DNA from: Ignavibacteria bacterium
GTDB taxonomy: Bacteria; Bacteroidota; Ignavibacteria; Ignavibacteriales; SURF-24
Assembly (NCBI GenBank): GCA_025612245.1
Contig: JAAXKQ010000016.1
Span: 62,001 to 126,000, forward strand
Direction: 5' to 3'
DNA: 64,000 nucleotides
This document shows, piece after piece, positions 3,506-50,007 of the stretch (position 1 is the stretch's first letter; the number at the start of each line of letters is the position of its first letter). Position numbers and translations under genes: made by a program. Under the pieces are notes generated by a model. That model ran no database searches, was not told the origin of the DNA, and was given only the letters and a program-made list of their open reading frames with translations.

Positions 3506-3864
3506 TGCTTCTCCAAAAGTGTTTATAATAAATAATATGCCCGTGTCAGATTTAAGTCAAGACAGAAGAAATTCAAGCCTTTTTAAGGGGATAACAGGAT
3601 AAATTATCAGATTATAGAATTCTTAAGCATCCGGACCCTATTAATTACTATTTTTAAGATTTTTTTAGCATGCTTTTTCACATTAAAGACAATGTATGAA
3701 AGTACATTTTACCGAATGTCAAAAAGCAGCCTGTTTTCCAGTATTTACCGGGTCTTTAAGAGAATGGCTTAGTTTTTGCTATAAACAAGCCAACAGGGAA
3801 TCTTCTATGCTTTCCTAATTAGGATTTTAGGTATTATTTAATAAAATATTTTGGAGTTAAATAA
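3506..3864. other. Intergenic region upstream of nifJ
   Basis: This AT-rich spacer lies between the divergent DUF5335 gene and nifJ and must hold both promoters. A perfect 12-base palindrome, TCCTAATTAGGA, sits at 3813-3824, about 40 bases before the nifJ start, and could be an operator. A GGAG ribosome-binding site precedes the nifJ ATG. No gene is supported here. Confidence 0.4.
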
Positions 3865-44945: not shown

Positions 44946-45108
44946 AAATCTGATTGCCTCCCGGAAGGAAAGAGTAGCACAATATGGCTCCAGTGCCCTG
45001 CTCCCTGGCGCATATCGGGGGCAGCATTAAGGGGAAAAGCGGAAATTTTGGTATTAAGTCTTTATATTACTGACCTATAAATTATTTCTAATAATCCAGT
45101 AAAAAGCA

Positions 45109-46284
45109 ATGAAAAGGCATCTTTGTTATTTTGCAGCATTTATTTCACTTTTATTATTCAACAGCATTATGGCACAGAACGAAAAAGTTATTACTATAAA
45201 CGTTAAAGCGGGAAATCTGCCTGAAGCTTCAAAGGTCTACATTGTAGGAAGCCATGCCCTGCTTGGAGAGTGGAACCCGGGCAGGGTGCCGCTTGAGAAA
45301 AACCGGGACGGGATCTGGACTAAGAGGCTGAGCTTCAAAAAAGGGGAGACGCTTGAGTTCAAGTTTACCCTTGGAAGCTGGGATAATGAAGCACTTAATG
45401 AGGATGGCTCTGTTCCCGGAAATTATAACCTTACTGTCACCTCCGACACCACGCTTAGCTTCGGGATCCGGAACTGGAAAAAGGGTCCGACCGGCCGCAT
45501 CGTGCACGGACAAATTACGGGAAGCGTAAAATACCACACGGGCATGACCTGGCAGTCACTGGATCCAAGGGACGTAATCGTGTGGCTCCCGCCAAGCTAC
45601 GCTAAAGACAATAACAGGCGATATCCCGTCCTTTATATGCACGACGGACAGAACATTATTGACCCTAATACTTCCAGCTTCGGCTACGACTGGCAGGTTG
45701 ATGAGACCTCGGACAGCCTGATAAAGGCAGGCAGGATGCAGGAAGTGATTATCGTTGGCATTAACAACACAAAGGACAGGACGGCTGAATATTCCTACAC
45801 AGAGCTCGGGCGTTCATATATGCGCTTTATTGTTGAAAAGCTGAAGCCAATGATTGACAGTACATATCGCACGCTTCCCGACAGGGAGAATACTGCAACC
45901 ATGGGCTCTTCCATGGGAGGGCTGATTTCTTTTATGCTCATCTGGGAGCACCCCGAAGTATTCTCAAAGGCTGCCTGCCTCTCGCCGGCATTTAAGATCC
46001 AGGAACTCGATTACCTGCCCTTTATTGAAGCTTATACCGGTCCCAGGAAACCTCTTAAGATTTATATTGATAACGGCGGCATCGGGCTCGAAAAAAGACT
46101 TTTGCCGGGCGTTGAAGAAACGGTCAGCCTTCTTAAAAAGAAAGGCTATTCCGAAGGCCGGGACCTCATGTTTTATTACGACAAAAATGCCGAACACAAT
46201 GAACCCGCATGGGCAAAAAGGCTCTACATTCCGCTTGAGTTTCTCTTTGGCACGGATCAGGGTAAATTGTCTGACCGTCAATAA
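45109..46284 (+). CDS. Secreted esterase with N-terminal CBM20-like starch-binding domain
   Basis: A 391-residue exported protein with a signal peptide ending NSIMAQ near residue 23. Residues about 25-125 form a CBM20-like beta sandwich (VYIVGSHALLGEWNP, then FKFTLGSWDNE). Residues 150-385 are an esterase D/Fes-like alpha/beta hydrolase: YPVLYMHDGQN, the nucleophile elbow MGSSMGGL near residue 267, and AEHNEPAWAKR with the catalytic His. Such proteins deacylate polysaccharides or hydrolyse siderophore-like esters. The CBM suggests an alpha-glucan-associated substrate; this is inference. Confidence 0.88.
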   Translation: MKRHLCYFAAFISLLLFNSIMAQNEKVITINVKAGNLPEASKVYIVGSHALLGEWNPGRVPLEKNRDGIWTKRLSFKKGETLEFKFTLGSWDNEALNEDGSVPGNYNLTVTSDTTLSFGIRNWKKGPTGRIVHGQITGSVKYHTGMTWQSLDPRDVIVWLPPSYAKDNNRRYPVLYMHDGQNIIDPNTSSFGYDWQVDETSDSLIKAGRMQEVIIVGINNTKDRTAEYSYTELGRSYMRFIVEKLKPMIDSTYRTLPDRENTATMGSSMGGLISFMLIWEHPEVFSKAACLSPAFKIQELDYLPFIEAYTGPRKPLKIYIDNGGIGLEKRLLPGVEETVSLLKKKGYSEGRDLMFYYDKNAEHNEPAWAKRLYIPLEFLFGTDQGKLSDRQ

Positions 46285-46412
46285 TTTATCCGGGTACACT
46301 TACATAACGCAATTACCAAGCCCCTTTTGAGGGGCTCTCAGTCAATCCCACAACCATCTCTACGATACCTGAACCAATATAATCACGCCTCCCCCAAGCT
46401 CCGAAGGAGCGC

Positions 46413-46472
46413 TTTGTTTGTAGAAAAAACGAATAAAAAAAATATTCAGAGCTCCGGAAGGAGCGACTTGTA
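46413..46472 (+). repeat. 60-bp direct repeat, copy 1
   Basis: Starts TTTGTTTGTAGAAAAAACGA and ends GGAAGGAGCGACTTGTA. It is identical to 47013-47072 except for one base (46445 T versus 47045 A); the copies are exactly 600 bases apart. Each copy joins the tail of one hairpin unit to the whole of the next. Confidence 0.95.
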
Positions 46473-47012
46473 TCTTACTTCCCATTGGATAAACATATCA
46501 TTAAACCACGACCCCACACACATAAAAACCATCCCATCAAAACAACCGAGAATTATCTTAAATATTCATTACACAAAACACACAATCAGGGAAATACAAA
46601 GAACATGCAACCCTACAAATATGCTACCGCTAAAGCGGTAGAAATCCCAACACATTTACACCCGCTCACATTGCTTCCATTCATCATTCTTCTGTGCCGC
46701 TCCTGACCGGAGCTTTGTATATTGGGGCAAAATCCATTTCCCAGGGGTTCAGTCGCCCCCATCCGGGGGCTTCCTCACCCCGGGCTACAAATATCTCGCC
46801 CGCGCTGCGGGCTTAGTCATCGCACAATTCCAAACTCCCAGCCTTCATGGTTGTTTCCTTTCCCCCTCCACCTTATCCTTGTTCTCATTAAACTTCGAAC
46901 CTTGAACCTTGAACCCTTTTCCCTCGAACCTTGAACCTTTTCCCCATTCAAAACTGAAAACTTAAACCTTAACATCCTTCCGCTATATATTCATAGAGTC
47001 CCGGAGGGACGA

Positions 47013-47072
47013 TTTGTTTGTAGAAAAAACGAATAAAAAAAATAATCAGAGCTCCGGAAGGAGCGACTTGTA
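47013..47072 (+). repeat. 60-bp direct repeat, copy 2
   Basis: Second copy of the unit at 46413-46472, with one mismatch. The sequence diverges sharply after the terminal GACTTGTA, which marks the unit boundary. Confidence 0.95.
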
Positions 47073-47461
47073 AGGAAGGTCTTAATAATCTCTATCCATA
47101 TCAAACAAGTCGCCCTTCCAGGGCTCTATTGATGGGGGGAGGGGGAGTTCTCCTTCTCTGCTACAAACAAGTCGCCCTTCCAGGGCTCTCAAAAGAGAGG
47201 GAAGGAAGCATTCTTTTCTACAAACAAAACGCTCCTCTGGGGCTAAACCCATACCCAATTCCAATCCCACGCCCTTCATATTCCTTTCCTTCCTAAAACC
47301 TCGAACCTCGAACCTTGAACTCTTTCCCAACTTAAAACTTAAAACTCAAAACTCAAACCTTAAAATCCCTCCGGGGCTCTCAAAAGAGATGGGGGAAAGC
47401 ATTCTTTGCTACAGACAAATGAGTATAAGCCCGAACCCGGGCTTTAAGGAGAGGGGGGGAA

Positions 47462-47554
47462 AGTCCCGAAAGTGAAGTGGAAAGCCTGAAGGCTGAAATT
47501 GAAGAATTAAGATCCATGCTTTATTTCATTCAAAAAGCAGTTTTAGTAAGATGA
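47462..47554 (+). pseudogene. Possible 3' remnant of a coiled-coil protein gene
   Basis: This in-frame stretch reads SPESEVESLKAEIEELRS, then MLYFIQKAVLVR and a stop. The heptad pattern (LKAEIEELRSML) resembles the C-terminal coiled coil of surface or tail-type proteins. It has no start codon context and is preceded directly by the repeat island, so it may be the stub of a gene replaced or disrupted by the repeats. A near-perfect 13-14 base tandem duplication (AGTAAGATGACTT) spans its stop at 47545-47572. Confidence 0.35.
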
Positions 47555-47570
47555 CTTTGAGTAAGATGAC

Positions 47571-47798
47571 TTAACTTTCCACTTCCTTTTCTTCTTCTTT
47601 TCTTTTTCTGTACTGCCTTACGGCTCTTATAATGCCAACGACGTTCATTGCAAGTACAACAATGAGCAAAATCCAGTTCATTTTCCCGGTGTCGTAATAG
47701 GTCTTAATAACGCTTATTATTATCAGAGCCGTTGAGAGAATAAACAGACCCGTTGCCATTAAGGGATTAGGTCTTGATTTCCTTGGAATGTTATTCAT
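47571..47798 (-). CDS. Small two-span membrane protein
   Basis: A 75-residue protein with two hydrophobic helices (about residues 14-33 and 42-60) and a highly charged Lys/Arg/Glu C-terminal tail. Its start overlaps the rsmI stop by 4 bases (ATGA), so it is probably co-translated with rsmI. I do not recognise a family. Confidence 0.7.
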   Translation of the reverse strand: MNNIPRKSRPNPLMATGLFILSTALIIISVIKTYYDTGKMNWILLIVVLAMNVVGIIRAVRQYRKRKEEEKEVES

Positions 47799-48511
47799 TG
47801 AATTCCTTTCCCAGATTTATCTTCCTGCAGTTCCACCTTCCAGTCCAGCGGGGCAATGACTATTACAAATTCCCCCTTGATTACCCGGGTCTTCAGTTCA
47901 TCAAGCAGCTCAACTGGCCTTCCGCGCCAGGTTTCCTCGAACTTTTTCGTCAGTTCGCGCGAAACCGTTACGTACCTTTGGGGCATGTATTCATTTAATT
48001 CCTGCAGGAGCTTTTCAATCCTGTAGGTGGATTCATAAAGTATGATTGTCCTTTCTTCCCCGGAGAGCTGTTTTAGCTTTTTCTGCCGTCCCTTTTTCTG
48101 CGGCAGGAATCCCTCAAATACAAAGGCATCCGTTGGCAGTCCGCTCAGGCTTAGGGCCGTAATAAGCGCCGTAACGCCGGGCACGGCTTCAACCTTAATC
48201 CCTCTTTTAATTGCCGCTGAAATGAGCCTTACACCGGGATCCGAAATGGCAGGCGTCCCGGCATCGGAGACCAGCGCGCAGGATTCCCCTCGCTCTATCC
48301 TTTCTAAAGCGTAGTTAAGCTTGCCCGATTCAGACTGCGCATTAAATGAAACGAGTTCCTTGCTTATTTCAAAATGATTTAGAAGTATGGAAGTTACCCT
48401 TGTGTCCTCACAAAGGATAAAATCCACTTCCTTTAGTGTCTCAATTGCTCGTAGCGTAATGTCCTTGAGGTTGCCGATAGGGGTACTTACAATATAAACT
48501 GCTGGATTCAT
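47795..48511 (-). CDS. rsmI: 16S rRNA 2'-O-ribose C1402 methyltransferase RsmI
   Basis: A 238-residue SAM-dependent tetrapyrrole-methylase-fold enzyme that methylates C1402 in the ribosomal decoding centre. YIVSTPIGNLKDITLRAIE, FILCEDTRVT, ALVSDAGTPAISDPG and FEGFLPQKKGR are the RsmI landmarks. It is shorter than E. coli RsmI (286 residues) because the C-terminal extension is missing, as in other Bacteroidota. The downstream small membrane protein gene overlaps its stop. Confidence 0.95.
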   Translation of the reverse strand: MNPAVYIVSTPIGNLKDITLRAIETLKEVDFILCEDTRVTSILLNHFEISKELVSFNAQSESGKLNYALERIERGESCALVSDAGTPAISDPGVRLISAAIKRGIKVEAVPGVTALITALSLSGLPTDAFVFEGFLPQKKGRQKKLKQLSGEERTIILYESTYRIEKLLQELNEYMPQRYVTVSRELTKKFEETWRGRPVELLDELKTRVIKGEFVIVIAPLDWKVELQEDKSGKGIQ

Positions 48512-48600
48512 AGAATTTGTGTTTTTGCCTGAAATTAAGTTGTCTTTCCGGTTATTTTAAGCTCATCTGCTGGCCCGGCTTAGCGCATTTAAAATGATAA

Positions 48601-48619
48601 CGGCTCCGGAATGGAGCCG
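48601..48619 (-). terminator. Probable terminator after the lysine 6-aminotransferase gene
   Basis: CGGCTCC and GGAGCCG form a 7-bp stem with loop GGAAT. On the minus strand the stem is followed by TTATCATTTTAAA. It sits 26 bases beyond the stop codon. Confidence 0.55.
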
Positions 48620-48645
48620 CATCATGCAAGTAGTTTACTTATTGA

Positions 48646-50007
48646 TTATAAATTCGCTTTCATTAAATATAATACTTTTTCAATTATTTTCAAACCCTCA
48701 ATTAATTCCTCTCCCGTAATGGTAAGTGAGGGCCGGAATCTTATGGAATGCGTTCCGCAGGGGAGAATTAGCAGTTTGTGCGCGTAGCACAGGTTCAGAA
48801 ACTCCTTCCTCAACTCTACGCCTGGCATGTCAAATGAGCACATGAGCCCAAGCCCCCTGACGTTTGAGATGAGTTCAGGATAATCTTCCTGAAGGTCAAA
48901 AAGTTTCTCCAGCAGGAGCTTGCCCTGCAGCTCTGCATTTTCCACCAGGTTATCCTCTTCAATTATCTCAAGATTCCTCTTCGACCGCACCATGTCAACC
49001 AGGTTGCCGCCCCAGGTTGAGTTAATGCGGCTGGACTTGCGGAAGCAGTGGTCCTCAACGTCATCAATCCTGTTACTGACCATGATGCCGCAGATCTGCA
49101 TTTTTTTGCCGAAGGATACTATGTCGGGATCTATGTAGTGCTGGTGCGCCCACATCTTGCCCGTAAGGCCGATGCCCGTTTGAACCTCGTCGTACATGAG
49201 TAATATTTCGTTTTCGTCGGCAATTTCCCTGAGTTTACGGTGAAATTCCTTGCGGAAGAAGTTATCGCCGCCCTCGGCCTGAATGGGTTCGATTATAATG
49301 AGTGCTATGTCGTCAGGGTTATTTTTAATTGCCGCATAGATCTCGTCAATTGCACGGTTTTCCAGTTTTACCACCTCGTCCAGGTTCTCCTCCAGGGGAA
49401 ATTTGATCTTGGGGTTTGTAATTCTGGGCCAGTTAAATTTCGGGAAATACATGATCTTATTGGGGTCTGTATTTGTAAGAGACAGCGTATAGCCGCTCCT
49501 GCCGTGGAAGGCCTCCTTGAAGTGGATTACCTGCTGTCCTTTTTCCTCTTTAATTCCTTTCTGGAGGTTCTTTCTTACCTTCCAGTCAAATGCTACTTTT
49601 AGGCCGTTTTCAACTGCCAGCGACCCGCCGTCGATAAAGAAAAGGTACTTGAAATGTTCAGGAACTCCAATGCGGCTGAAGGCGTCTACAAATTCGGCCA
49701 TTTCAACGGTGTAAAGGTCGGAATTTGAAGGCTTGTTTAAGGAGGCAATGTAGCCGATTTTTTCCCTGAATTCAGGACTGCTTAGCTTTGGGTGGTTAAG
49801 ACCGACGGGGGAGGAGGCGAAGAAAGAAAAGAAATCCAGATATGCCTCTCCGGTTCTGGCATCAACAAGGTGACATCCATAACTGCGGTTATGATCAAAG
49901 ACCAGATCAAAACCATCTACGAGCATTTTCTTTCTGAGGACTTCGTGAACTGTTTCAGCGCTGATACTCTCAAAAGACAGATTCGTATTTAAGATAGCTG
50001 TAGCCAT
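48646..50007 (-). CDS. lat: L-lysine 6-transaminase
   Basis: A 453-residue class III PLP aminotransferase that transfers the epsilon-amino group of lysine to 2-oxoglutarate, giving 2-aminoadipate semialdehyde. FDHNRSYGCHLVDARTGEAYLDFFSFFASSPVGLNHP at the N-terminus is specific to LAT rather than ornithine or GABA transaminases. AFHGRSGYTLSLTNTDP, EPIQAEGGDNFF, LMYDEVQTGIGLTG and the PLP lysine in SFGKKMQICG (near residue 300) are present. GGAGAG precedes the ATG. No other lysine-degradation gene is in the window. It is separated from the TonB operon by a 768-base divergent spacer. Confidence 0.94.
   Translation of the reverse strand: MATAILNTNLSFESISAETVHEVLRKKMLVDGFDLVFDHNRSYGCHLVDARTGEAYLDFFSFFASSPVGLNHPKLSSPEFREKIGYIASLNKPSNSDLYTVEMAEFVDAFSRIGVPEHFKYLFFIDGGSLAVENGLKVAFDWKVRKNLQKGIKEEKGQQVIHFKEAFHGRSGYTLSLTNTDPNKIMYFPKFNWPRITNPKIKFPLEENLDEVVKLENRAIDEIYAAIKNNPDDIALIIIEPIQAEGGDNFFRKEFHRKLREIADENEILLMYDEVQTGIGLTGKMWAHQHYIDPDIVSFGKKMQICGIMVSNRIDDVEDHCFRKSSRINSTWGGNLVDMVRSKRNLEIIEEDNLVENAELQGKLLLEKLFDLQEDYPELISNVRGLGLMCSFDMPGVELRKEFLNLCYAHKLLILPCGTHSIRFRPSLTITGEELIEGLKIIEKVLYLMKANL

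What the first reader, a model, noticed from the sequence alone, without database searches (positions are those of the whole stretch)
46290..47460. REP-like hairpin island with paired base changes
At least seven copies of a unit made of a 5-bp stem (GCTCC-GGAA-GGAGC in the main form, a GNRA-type loop) followed by GACTTGTTTGTAG occur in both orientations. In the inverted copies the stem reads GCCCT/AGGGC, so both strands of the stem changed together, which argues for selection on the fold. This looks like a palindromic repeat family of the REP/BIME type, often moved by RAYT (TnpA-REP) transposases.
Basis: partly seen in the sequence, partly recalled or inferred. Interest (0 to 1): 0.5.

Follow-up and report, generated by a model that had tools for sequence, protein, structure and literature searches.

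The report
Hairpin repeats paired with IS200-like enzymes
The window holds a cluster of tiny hairpin-forming DNA repeats that are scattered through the genome and sit beside genes for a little-studied kind of DNA-cutting enzyme in many related bacteria, which suggests that these enzymes, not the ones already known to move such repeats, spread them.

Summary
Window 46290-47460 carries seven family-A units (hairpin plus GACTTGTTTGTAG or a decayed form) in both orientations and two related units. Stems covary, and a model finds 59-71 copies genome-wide. REP-like is right; RAYT is not. The enzymes flanked by these units are IS200-type Y1 proteins with the Y-x3-Q-x2-HH signature (subclass 1.2 of Quentin et al. 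2018), which that paper lists with REP 'no'. They score under NCBI's RAYT cut-off. The tag is also on the other side: canonical REPs carry GTAG 0-2 nt 5' of the hairpin; here [GA]TAG lies 3', typically 14 nt from the loop.

This generalises. Of 72 high-scoring loci, 60 of them from a sample of the phylum, 53 carry such a unit within 600 nt, against 1-6 of about 70 at shifted positions, 0 of 30 at RAYT genes and 0 of 8 at other IS200 genes; a second set gave 9 of 18. Orthologous enzymes in two congeneric genomes share unit families; paralogues have other stems. Movement and cleavage are inferred, not shown. Best reading: a widespread REP-like system served by subclass-1.2 HUH enzymes, a new variant of a known kind.

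The parts
46290..47460 (.). composite REP-like island between convergent genes (putative esterase 45109-46284 +, and 47795-48511 -, rsmI-like by recall)
   Evidence: 99 blastn matches in own genome, itself included; no unit seen at the orthologous site of congener G001, which has a 100-N gap there
46396..46423 (+). family-A unit: hairpin GCTCC-GAA-GGAGC + GCTTTGTTTGTAG
46449..46477 (+). family-A unit, hairpin GCTCC-GGAA-GGAGC 46451-46464, tail decayed after GACTTGT
46613..46643 (-). family-B unit: CTACCGC-TTTA-GCGGTAG + CATATTTGTAG; I found no linked enzyme in this genome
46785..46814 (-). unit of another family (called D): GCCCGC-AGC-GCGGGC + GAGATATTTGTAG; loop-to-GTAG 15 nt; its enzyme not established
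46995..47023 (+). family-A unit: GTCCC-GGA-GGGAC + GATTTGTTTGTAG
47048..47077 (+). family-A unit: GCTCC-GGAA-GGAGC, tail decayed after GACTTGT
47099..47127 (-). family-A unit: GCCCT-GGA-AGGGC + GACTTGTTTGATA
47161..47189 (-). family-A unit: GCCCT-GGA-AGGGC + GACTTGTTTGTAG
47218..47246 (-). family-A unit, imperfect stem GCCCC-AGA-GGAGC + GTTTTGTTTGTAG
47461..47567 (+). weak remnant resembling the 3' end of the DUF480-type gene that sits here in congener G001
   Evidence: blastn over 47467-47549, 69% identity, E 0.002; protein resemblance judged by eye

Best explanation
The units are REP-like elements: short single-strand hairpins followed on the 3' side by a tag [GA]TAG, typically 14 nt from the loop. 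Each family is cognate to a HUH Y1 enzyme of subclass 1.2 whose gene it flanks: family A with the C26 gene, family C with one C22 gene, and a third stem with the other C22 gene. Shown: the architecture, the linkage, the covariation, the enzyme-to-family pairing in two congeneric genomes, and the dispersal of family A. Inferred: the enzyme binds the folded strand, cuts near the tag, and copies or moves units and composite islands through single-stranded DNA at replication forks. The window island is one composite product of this, built from several families.
For: Hairpins are 8.32/kb within 250 nt of 72 genes against 1.32-1.36/kb beyond 2 kb, and the enriched 3'-tail words include GTAGA and TTTGTAG, with no motif assumed. 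GTAG is 3.3-fold enriched 3' of near hairpins, CTAC (the canonical side) 1.3-fold. Ruler-14 [GA]TAG units: 172 near (2.01/kb, 53 of 72 loci) against 22 far (0.032/kb). Shift test: 52 of 70 loci or 53 of 70 (slightly different filter) against 1-6 of 69-71 at six shifted positions. 0 of 30 class-2 RAYT loci and 0 of 8 IS200-model loci without the signature. In G000 and G001, enzyme orthologues (84-87% and 82% identical) carry the same family, other pairs that have units (43-61%) carry other stems. Enzyme identity tracks unit similarity over 54 loci, Mantel r 0.374, 0 of 999. Covariation: 4 of 5 pairs changed on both sides, 0 of 500 shuffles reach the covariation score; unselected test. Genomes with five or more hits to a generic unit pattern: 10 of 126 with an enzyme match, 0 of 121 without. 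No unit at the congener's orthologous site. AlphaFold model matches IS200/IS608/ISDra2 TnpA.
Against: No excision, insertion or cleavage was observed; the congener comparison shows absence (with a 100-N assembly gap in the stretch), not an exact empty site. 19 of 72 loci lack a strict ruler-14 [GA]TAG unit (several of these have GTAA or a shift of one), and in a second set of subclass-1.2 loci only 9 of 18 have one. Two genomes with 3-4 pattern hits have no detected enzyme, and most enzyme-matching genomes (91 of 126) have no hit to that pattern. Three of seven window units have lost the tag. Near-identical enzyme pairs exist in G001 (96-97%) and G002 (98%), so gene-plus-repeats may itself move like an IS. 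Polarity of islands follows GC skew in 29 of 34 but only 9 of 11 contigs (p 0.065; block-flip p 0.014), and the window island is an exception. The 5' foot shows almost no conserved guide, which does not fit a simple IS608-type guide model. The Bernardetia plasmid has just the two units beside its tnpA.
Confidence: 0.76

Rival explanations
1. Ordinary REP/REPIN elements served by a class-2 RAYT elsewhere in the genome; the subclass-1.2 genes are merely insertion hot spots.
For: The genome holds a class-2-like gene at C31:45097-45549; several REP families coexist in some genomes (PMC3733652, parts 1-2 of 8 read).
Against: That gene has its own hairpin with canonical 5' GTAG, unlike the window units. 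Ruler-14 [GA]TAG units occur at 0 of 30 class-2 loci of the phylum. Unit families follow subclass-1.2 orthology.
Confidence: 0.07
2. The hairpins are the ends (LE/RE) of IS200-type insertion sequences, and the dispersed copies are decayed or non-autonomous (MITE/PATE-like) derivatives of a still ordinary IS.
For: Enzyme fold and profile are IS200-like. A hairpin followed at a distance by a tetranucleotide resembles an IS608 right end (recalled). Near-identical enzyme pairs in G001 (96-97%, both with family A) and G002 (98%); up to 11 profile matches in one genome.
Against: In the own genome the three intact enzymes are only 46-58% identical. Units lie on both sides in both orientations. Eight IS200-model loci without the signature show no ruler-14 unit.
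Confidence: 0.12
3. The units are RNA elements (terminators, mRNA stabilisers or small RNA parts) kept by selection on the transcript, unrelated to any enzyme.
For: Covarying stems; the window island lies between convergent genes.
Against: No Rfam match up to E 1 in 45000-49000; no U-run after the stem; strong linkage to one enzyme subclass; units in both orientations.
Confidence: 0.04
4. The islands are polar chromosome-organising sequences (FtsK- or Chi-like), which explains their polarity with GC skew.
For: 29 of 34 islands point the same way relative to local skew.
Against: 34 islands in the stretches examined are few for such a role; the units within the window island point both ways; enzyme linkage is unexplained.
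Confidence: 0.01

Closest known systems
Canonical GTAG REP / REPtron with class-2 TnpA-REP (RAYT), e.g. E. coli, S. maltophilia (PMC3733652 parts 1-2 of 8; PMC6006769 sections 12 and 18 and passages; PMC8266576 passages)
   Same: Short hairpin with a GTAG tag, dispersed copies, inverted neighbours, copies around a HUH Y1 gene, one repeat family per enzyme
   Different: Tag 3' of the hairpin, typically 14 nt from the loop, instead of 0-2 nt 5' of the foot; enzyme has the subclass-1.2 signature, not class 2; loops mostly G/A-N-A closed by C and G
IS200/IS605 insertion sequences (TnpA subclass 1.1; IS608, ISDra2)
   Same: HUH Y1 fold; a tetranucleotide at a distance 3' of a hairpin, as at an IS608 right end (recalled)
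   Different: No near-identical copies in the own genome; hairpins on both sides in both orientations; no conserved tetranucleotide at the 5' foot
TnpA-Y1 subclass 1.2 (Quentin et al. 2018, PMC6006769 section 18 and table passage)
   Same: Y-x3-Q-x2-HH signature in 71 of 72 loci, HUH and WQ motifs, Bacteroidetes
   Different: [quoted passage not shown] here 53 of 72 loci carry tagged repeat hairpins
Atypical structures of class-2 subclass 2.6 and class 3 (PMC6006769, section 12 and passages)
   Same: Hairpins near the gene, copies elsewhere, not found by the canonical GTAG search
   Different: Different enzymes; described there as lacking the GT[AG]G consensus, class 3 with a 5' CnGA foot

Membership tests
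canonical GTAG REP | GTAG/GTGG 0-2 nt 5' of the hairpin foot | tested here: not met
   CTAC in 3'-read tails 1.3-fold against GTAG 3.3-fold; GTAG lies 7-9 nt 3' of the foot in 121 of 155 near tails
canonical GTAG REP | high-copy dispersed palindrome | tested here: met
   Family A: 71 covariance-model hits at E<=1, 59 at E<=0.01 in the own genome and 75 in congener G001; 150 of about 2,000 first-look candidates per genome were scored
canonical GTAG REP | inverted pairs or clusters (BIME/REPIN) | tested here: met
   67 opposite and 48 same-strand neighbour pairs within 250 nt near the genes; window island mixed
canonical GTAG REP | mostly extragenic genome-wide | not tested
   Only the window island was checked: it lies between convergent genes
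RAYT (class-2 TnpA-REP) | cognate enzyme over the NF047646 cut-off | tested here: not met
   33.7, 35.7 and 22 bits against cut-off 80
RAYT (class-2 TnpA-REP) | class-2 tyrosine motif ending in NP (motif table of PMC6006769) | tested here: not met
   Y-x3-Q-x2-HH (one with QH) in 71 of 72 loci
TnpA-Y1 subclass 1.2 | Y-x3-Q-x2-HH signature with HUH and WQ | tested here: met
   definition from PMC6006769
TnpA-Y1 subclass 1.2 | tree placement with the published members | not tested
   The published reference proteins were not at hand
IS200/IS605 insertion sequence | HUH Y1 TnpA fold | tested here: met
   Foldseek top 2ec2, 2xma, 2xm3; VIA-align top 2fyx Z 12.4 over 118 residues, rmsd 3.0; RAYT 4er8 Z 10.6 over 126, rmsd 3.4
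IS200/IS605 insertion sequence | element present as several near-identical copies with LE and RE | tested here: inconclusive
   Own genome: three intact enzymes 46-58% identical plus fragments. G001 has a 96-97% pair and G002 a 98% pair; element boundaries not examined
any mobile element | observed excision or insertion | not testable with these tools
   Only presence/absence between G000 and G001

The most novel reading that the evidence does not exclude
Subclass-1.2 Y1 enzymes form a second, independent REP system. Domesticated IS200-type HUH enzymes recognise a mirror-image REP whose tag lies 3' at a fixed distance from the loop, as at an IS right end. The system is widespread through the phylum and moves units and composite islands with a replication-strand preference. 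It would be a direct intermediate between IS200 ends and REPtrons.
Probability: 0.55. Interest if true: 0.75.

Novelty: new variant of a known kind. Interest (0 to 1): 0.62.

Why it matters
126 of 247 sampled genomes of the phylum match the enzyme profile at E<=0.001 (the weaker matches may be other Y1 proteins), so the system may be a major REP-like repeat of a large phylum that a search for GT[AG]G on the 5' side would not see. It gives a lead for an enzyme subclass left without REPs or IS ends. It also offers a natural comparison for how HUH enzymes choose cut sites: same fold and a GTAG tag, opposite side of the hairpin, a spacing rule and no visible guide. That makes the question of how REPs arose from IS200 ends testable with oligonucleotides.

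Tried and rejected
Rfam on 45000-49000, E up to 1: no match. Class-2 RAYT as mover: rejected. A first, narrow motif test (exact TTTGTAG in 51 loci: 53 against 35 for the reversed motif, 16 against 1 with a hairpin) was replaced by a motif-free hairpin scan. IS608-like guide at the 5' foot: no conserved tetranucleotide, only A at -1 in 66%. Head-to-tail arrays of minimal units: same-strand spacing peaks at 50-51 nt, none under 48 among ruler-14 units. A cyanobacterial plasmid hit (Kovacikia) lacks the HH signature; a Persicobacter plasmid hit has it but no ruler-14 tagged unit; a Bernardetia plasmid has two units, both beside its tnpA, and no other match to a pattern with that stem. The C9 enzyme fragments gave no clear family. 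The G001 C5 locus (L238) gave no usable protein and was left out of protein comparisons. I found no enzyme for family B in this genome. MAFFT misplaced the tetraloop insertion, so the covariation alignment used the 17 triloop units; these had been chosen for at least 4 of 5 pairs and a near-intact tag, so leans towards the structure and the unselected test is. Bertels et al. 2017 (recalled) is not held. Literature searches that listed no description of subclass-1.2 repeats; subscription journals are mostly missing.

Limits of the controls. The 72 loci are not random: 60 from the best matches, 12 from the own family. Shifted positions are mostly coding. The RAYT loci are no positive control: my scan saw few hairpins and few canonical 5' tags there (CTAC in 12 of 170 tails); with the looser tag [GA]TA[GA] 2 of 30 have a unit, and two of the 30 are cut by contig ends but were counted. 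Four of 30 loci of the IS200-model set were left out as cut, and some of its 18 subclass-1.2 loci are also among the 72. The ruler count took only offsets 6-10; one search used 4-12. One of the 34 'islands' is the unit array at the C26 enzyme; without it 29 of 33 agree.

Full report
What is there. The best-matching named records for a window gene (rsmI-like by recall) are a 'Bacteroidota bacterium' (75% identity) and Ignavibacteriales (73-74%), so the genome is taken as Ignavibacteria; it has 4.84 Mb in 44 contigs. The genomes sampled with the genome search are unnamed; I call their group 'the phylum', which is Bacteroidota in the wide sense (recalled placement). Between a putative esterase gene and a convergent gene lies an island, 46290-47460, with seven family-A units in both orientations and two units of other families. 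A family-A unit is a 5-bp hairpin with a 3- or 4-nt loop followed by GACTTGTTTGTAG or close to it; three of the seven window units have lost the final tag.

Is it real. Exact GCTCCGGAAGGAGC occurs 21 times in the genome, 0 for the reversed pattern. Searching only by the tail (up to 3 mismatches) in the own-genome stretches held gives 149 distinct hits, 41 with all five pairs in the fixed upstream position against 2.5 after shuffling. Seventeen selected triloop units show changes on both sides at four of five pairs (14 cells, none of 500 shuffles as many; slid structures 0-2 cells). A covariance model finds 71 hits at E<=1 in the own genome and, at E<=0.01, 59 in the own genome, 75 in the congener G001, 3 in one genome of the same order and none in the other 18 of 21. 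The island as a whole has 99 blastn matches, itself included, so it is one of many composite islands.

The enzyme. The Pfam Y1 model finds four places in the own genome: three intact genes and a fragment on C9. All three intact genes have ruler-14 tagged units beside them: C26 family A (eight within 500 nt), one C22 gene family C, the other C22 gene a third stem. The proteins read DH-x-H, WQ, Y-x3-Q-x2-HH. Two of three pass NCBI's IS200 model and all three fall far short of its RAYT model. An AlphaFold model (mean pLDDT 87) matches IS200, IS608 and ISDra2 transposases best, with the REP transposase 4er8 lower. The tyrosine signature is that of subclass 1.2 in Quentin et al. 2018 (PMC6006769; sections 12 and 18 and passages read), which that paper describes as low-copy, mostly in Cyanobacteria and Bacteroidetes, generally without typical IS200 ends, REP 'no'.

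Generality. A profile of the three enzymes matches 126 of 247 genomes sampled from the phylum at E<=0.001. I fetched 72 loci, 60 from the best of these matches and 12 from the own family, with up to 7-kb flanks; 71 carry the signature. With no motif assumed, perfect hairpins are 8.32/kb within 250 nt of the gene, 4.05 at 250-500 nt, and 1.32-1.36 beyond 2 kb; enriched words 3' of the hairpins include GTAGA (95 against 12.2 expected, 38 loci) and TTTGTAG (39 against 2.0). The tag is on the 3' side: GTAG 3.3-fold, its complement CTAC 1.3-fold, reversed GATG 0.7-fold. Among 189 units in 57 loci the distance from the loop to [GA]TAG is 14 nt in 168; with a wider offset it is 14 in 172 of 210 near units and 22 of 106 far ones. 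Within 600 nt, 53 of 72 loci have such a unit. In the shift test 53 of 70 loci have one or more and 43 two or more, against 1-6 and 0-1 of 69-71 at six shifted positions; allowing [GA]TA[GA], 61 of 70 against 1-9. Class-2 RAYT loci: 0 of 30; IS200-model loci without the signature: 0 of 8; subclass-1.2 loci in that second set: 9 of 18. So the unit belongs to this subclass but not to every member.

Pairing. In the two congeneric genomes the C26 enzyme and its two G001 orthologues (84-87% identical) have family A, and one C22 enzyme and its G001 orthologue (82%) have family C. The other pairs that have units (43-61%) have other stems, though the C8 and C26 enzymes of G001 share part of the linker. 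Over 54 loci enzyme identity and unit similarity correlate (r 0.374, permuted maximum 0.167); host relatedness confounds this, the within-genome contrast does not. A generic pattern for the unit has 168 hits in 247 genomes against 50 for the reversed pattern; five or more hits occur in 10 of 126 genomes with an enzyme match and 0 of 121 without, and the reversed pattern never reaches five. Two genomes with 3-4 hits have no detected enzyme, and 91 of 126 enzyme-matching genomes have no hit: the pattern is narrow, or amplification is not the rule.

Movement. The congener has the flanking genes at the orthologous site but no tagged unit between them; a 100-N assembly gap lies there, flanked by the same short sequence on both sides. 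In G003 the two matched stretches lie 193 nt apart. The G001 site holds a partial DUF480 gene, and the window keeps what looks like its 3' end; the DNA resemblance is weak (E 0.002). In the stretches examined, the orientation of 34 islands agrees with the sign of local GC skew in 29, switching within contig C12; by contig 9 of 11 agree (p 0.065) and a block-flip test gives 0.014. The five exceptions are the window island, both C40 islands, one C12 island near the skew switch, and the unit array at the C26 enzyme. This is what strand-biased single-strand insertion could give, but it is not proof.

Compared with what is known. Di Nocera et al. (PMC3733652; parts 1-2 of 8 read) define GTAG REPs by a terminal GTAG; Quentin et al. 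searched for GT[AG]G 0-2 nt 5' of the hairpin, so the present units would be missed by that rule. The in vitro work on TnpA-REP (PMC8266576, passages) concerns GTAG preceding the hairpin. In the main text of the RepRanger paper (PMC12306157, passages) the words transposase and RAYT do not occur. My searches listed no account of repeats with subclass 1.2. The system therefore looks like a REPtron in layout, but it is not a member of the RAYT REPtrons: two defining features, the 5' tag and the class-2 enzyme, were tested and not met.

Limits. Nothing here shows cutting or movement. The loci were taken from high-scoring matches, hairpins were called by a simple perfect-stem rule, and shifted positions are mostly coding. 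Subclass names and published features come from the cited passages; the IS608 right-end layout is recalled.

Noticed in passing
window 47461-47567; L309:3388-3977: Possible remnant of the 3' end of a DUF480-type gene beside the island; congener G001 has a partial DUF480 gene (profile positions 71-148) with an assembly gap at this site.
   Followed up: partly
window 46897-46972 and 47297-47365: Short period-7 tandem tracts (GAACCTT, AAAACTT, AACCTCG, AACTTAA) inside the island; origin unknown.
   Followed up: no
L273:3047-3589 (-) and 3659-3682: RAYT-like gene in the same genome (NH-x-H, YIQTNP; under the NF047646 cut-off) with one hairpin of canonical 5'-GTAG type: perhaps two different REP-type systems in one genome.
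   Followed up: partly
own genome, 34 islands in the stretches held: Composite islands mostly keep one polarity relative to GC skew, switching within contig C12; several contigs end inside islands.
   Followed up: partly
window 46319-46336: Hairpin AGCCCCTTTTGAGGGGCT just after the esterase gene, in a stretch also matched elsewhere in the genome, without a ruler-14 tag.
   Followed up: no
L181, L184, L202, L210, L211: Subclass-1.2 loci whose hairpin repeats carry other tails (GTAA, or in L211 no recognisable tag), suggesting tag drift between enzyme lineages.
   Followed up: partly
L234/L235 (G001 C16) and L241/L242 (G002): Near-identical enzyme pairs (96-97% and 98%) within one genome: recent duplication or transposition of the enzyme gene.
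   Followed up: no
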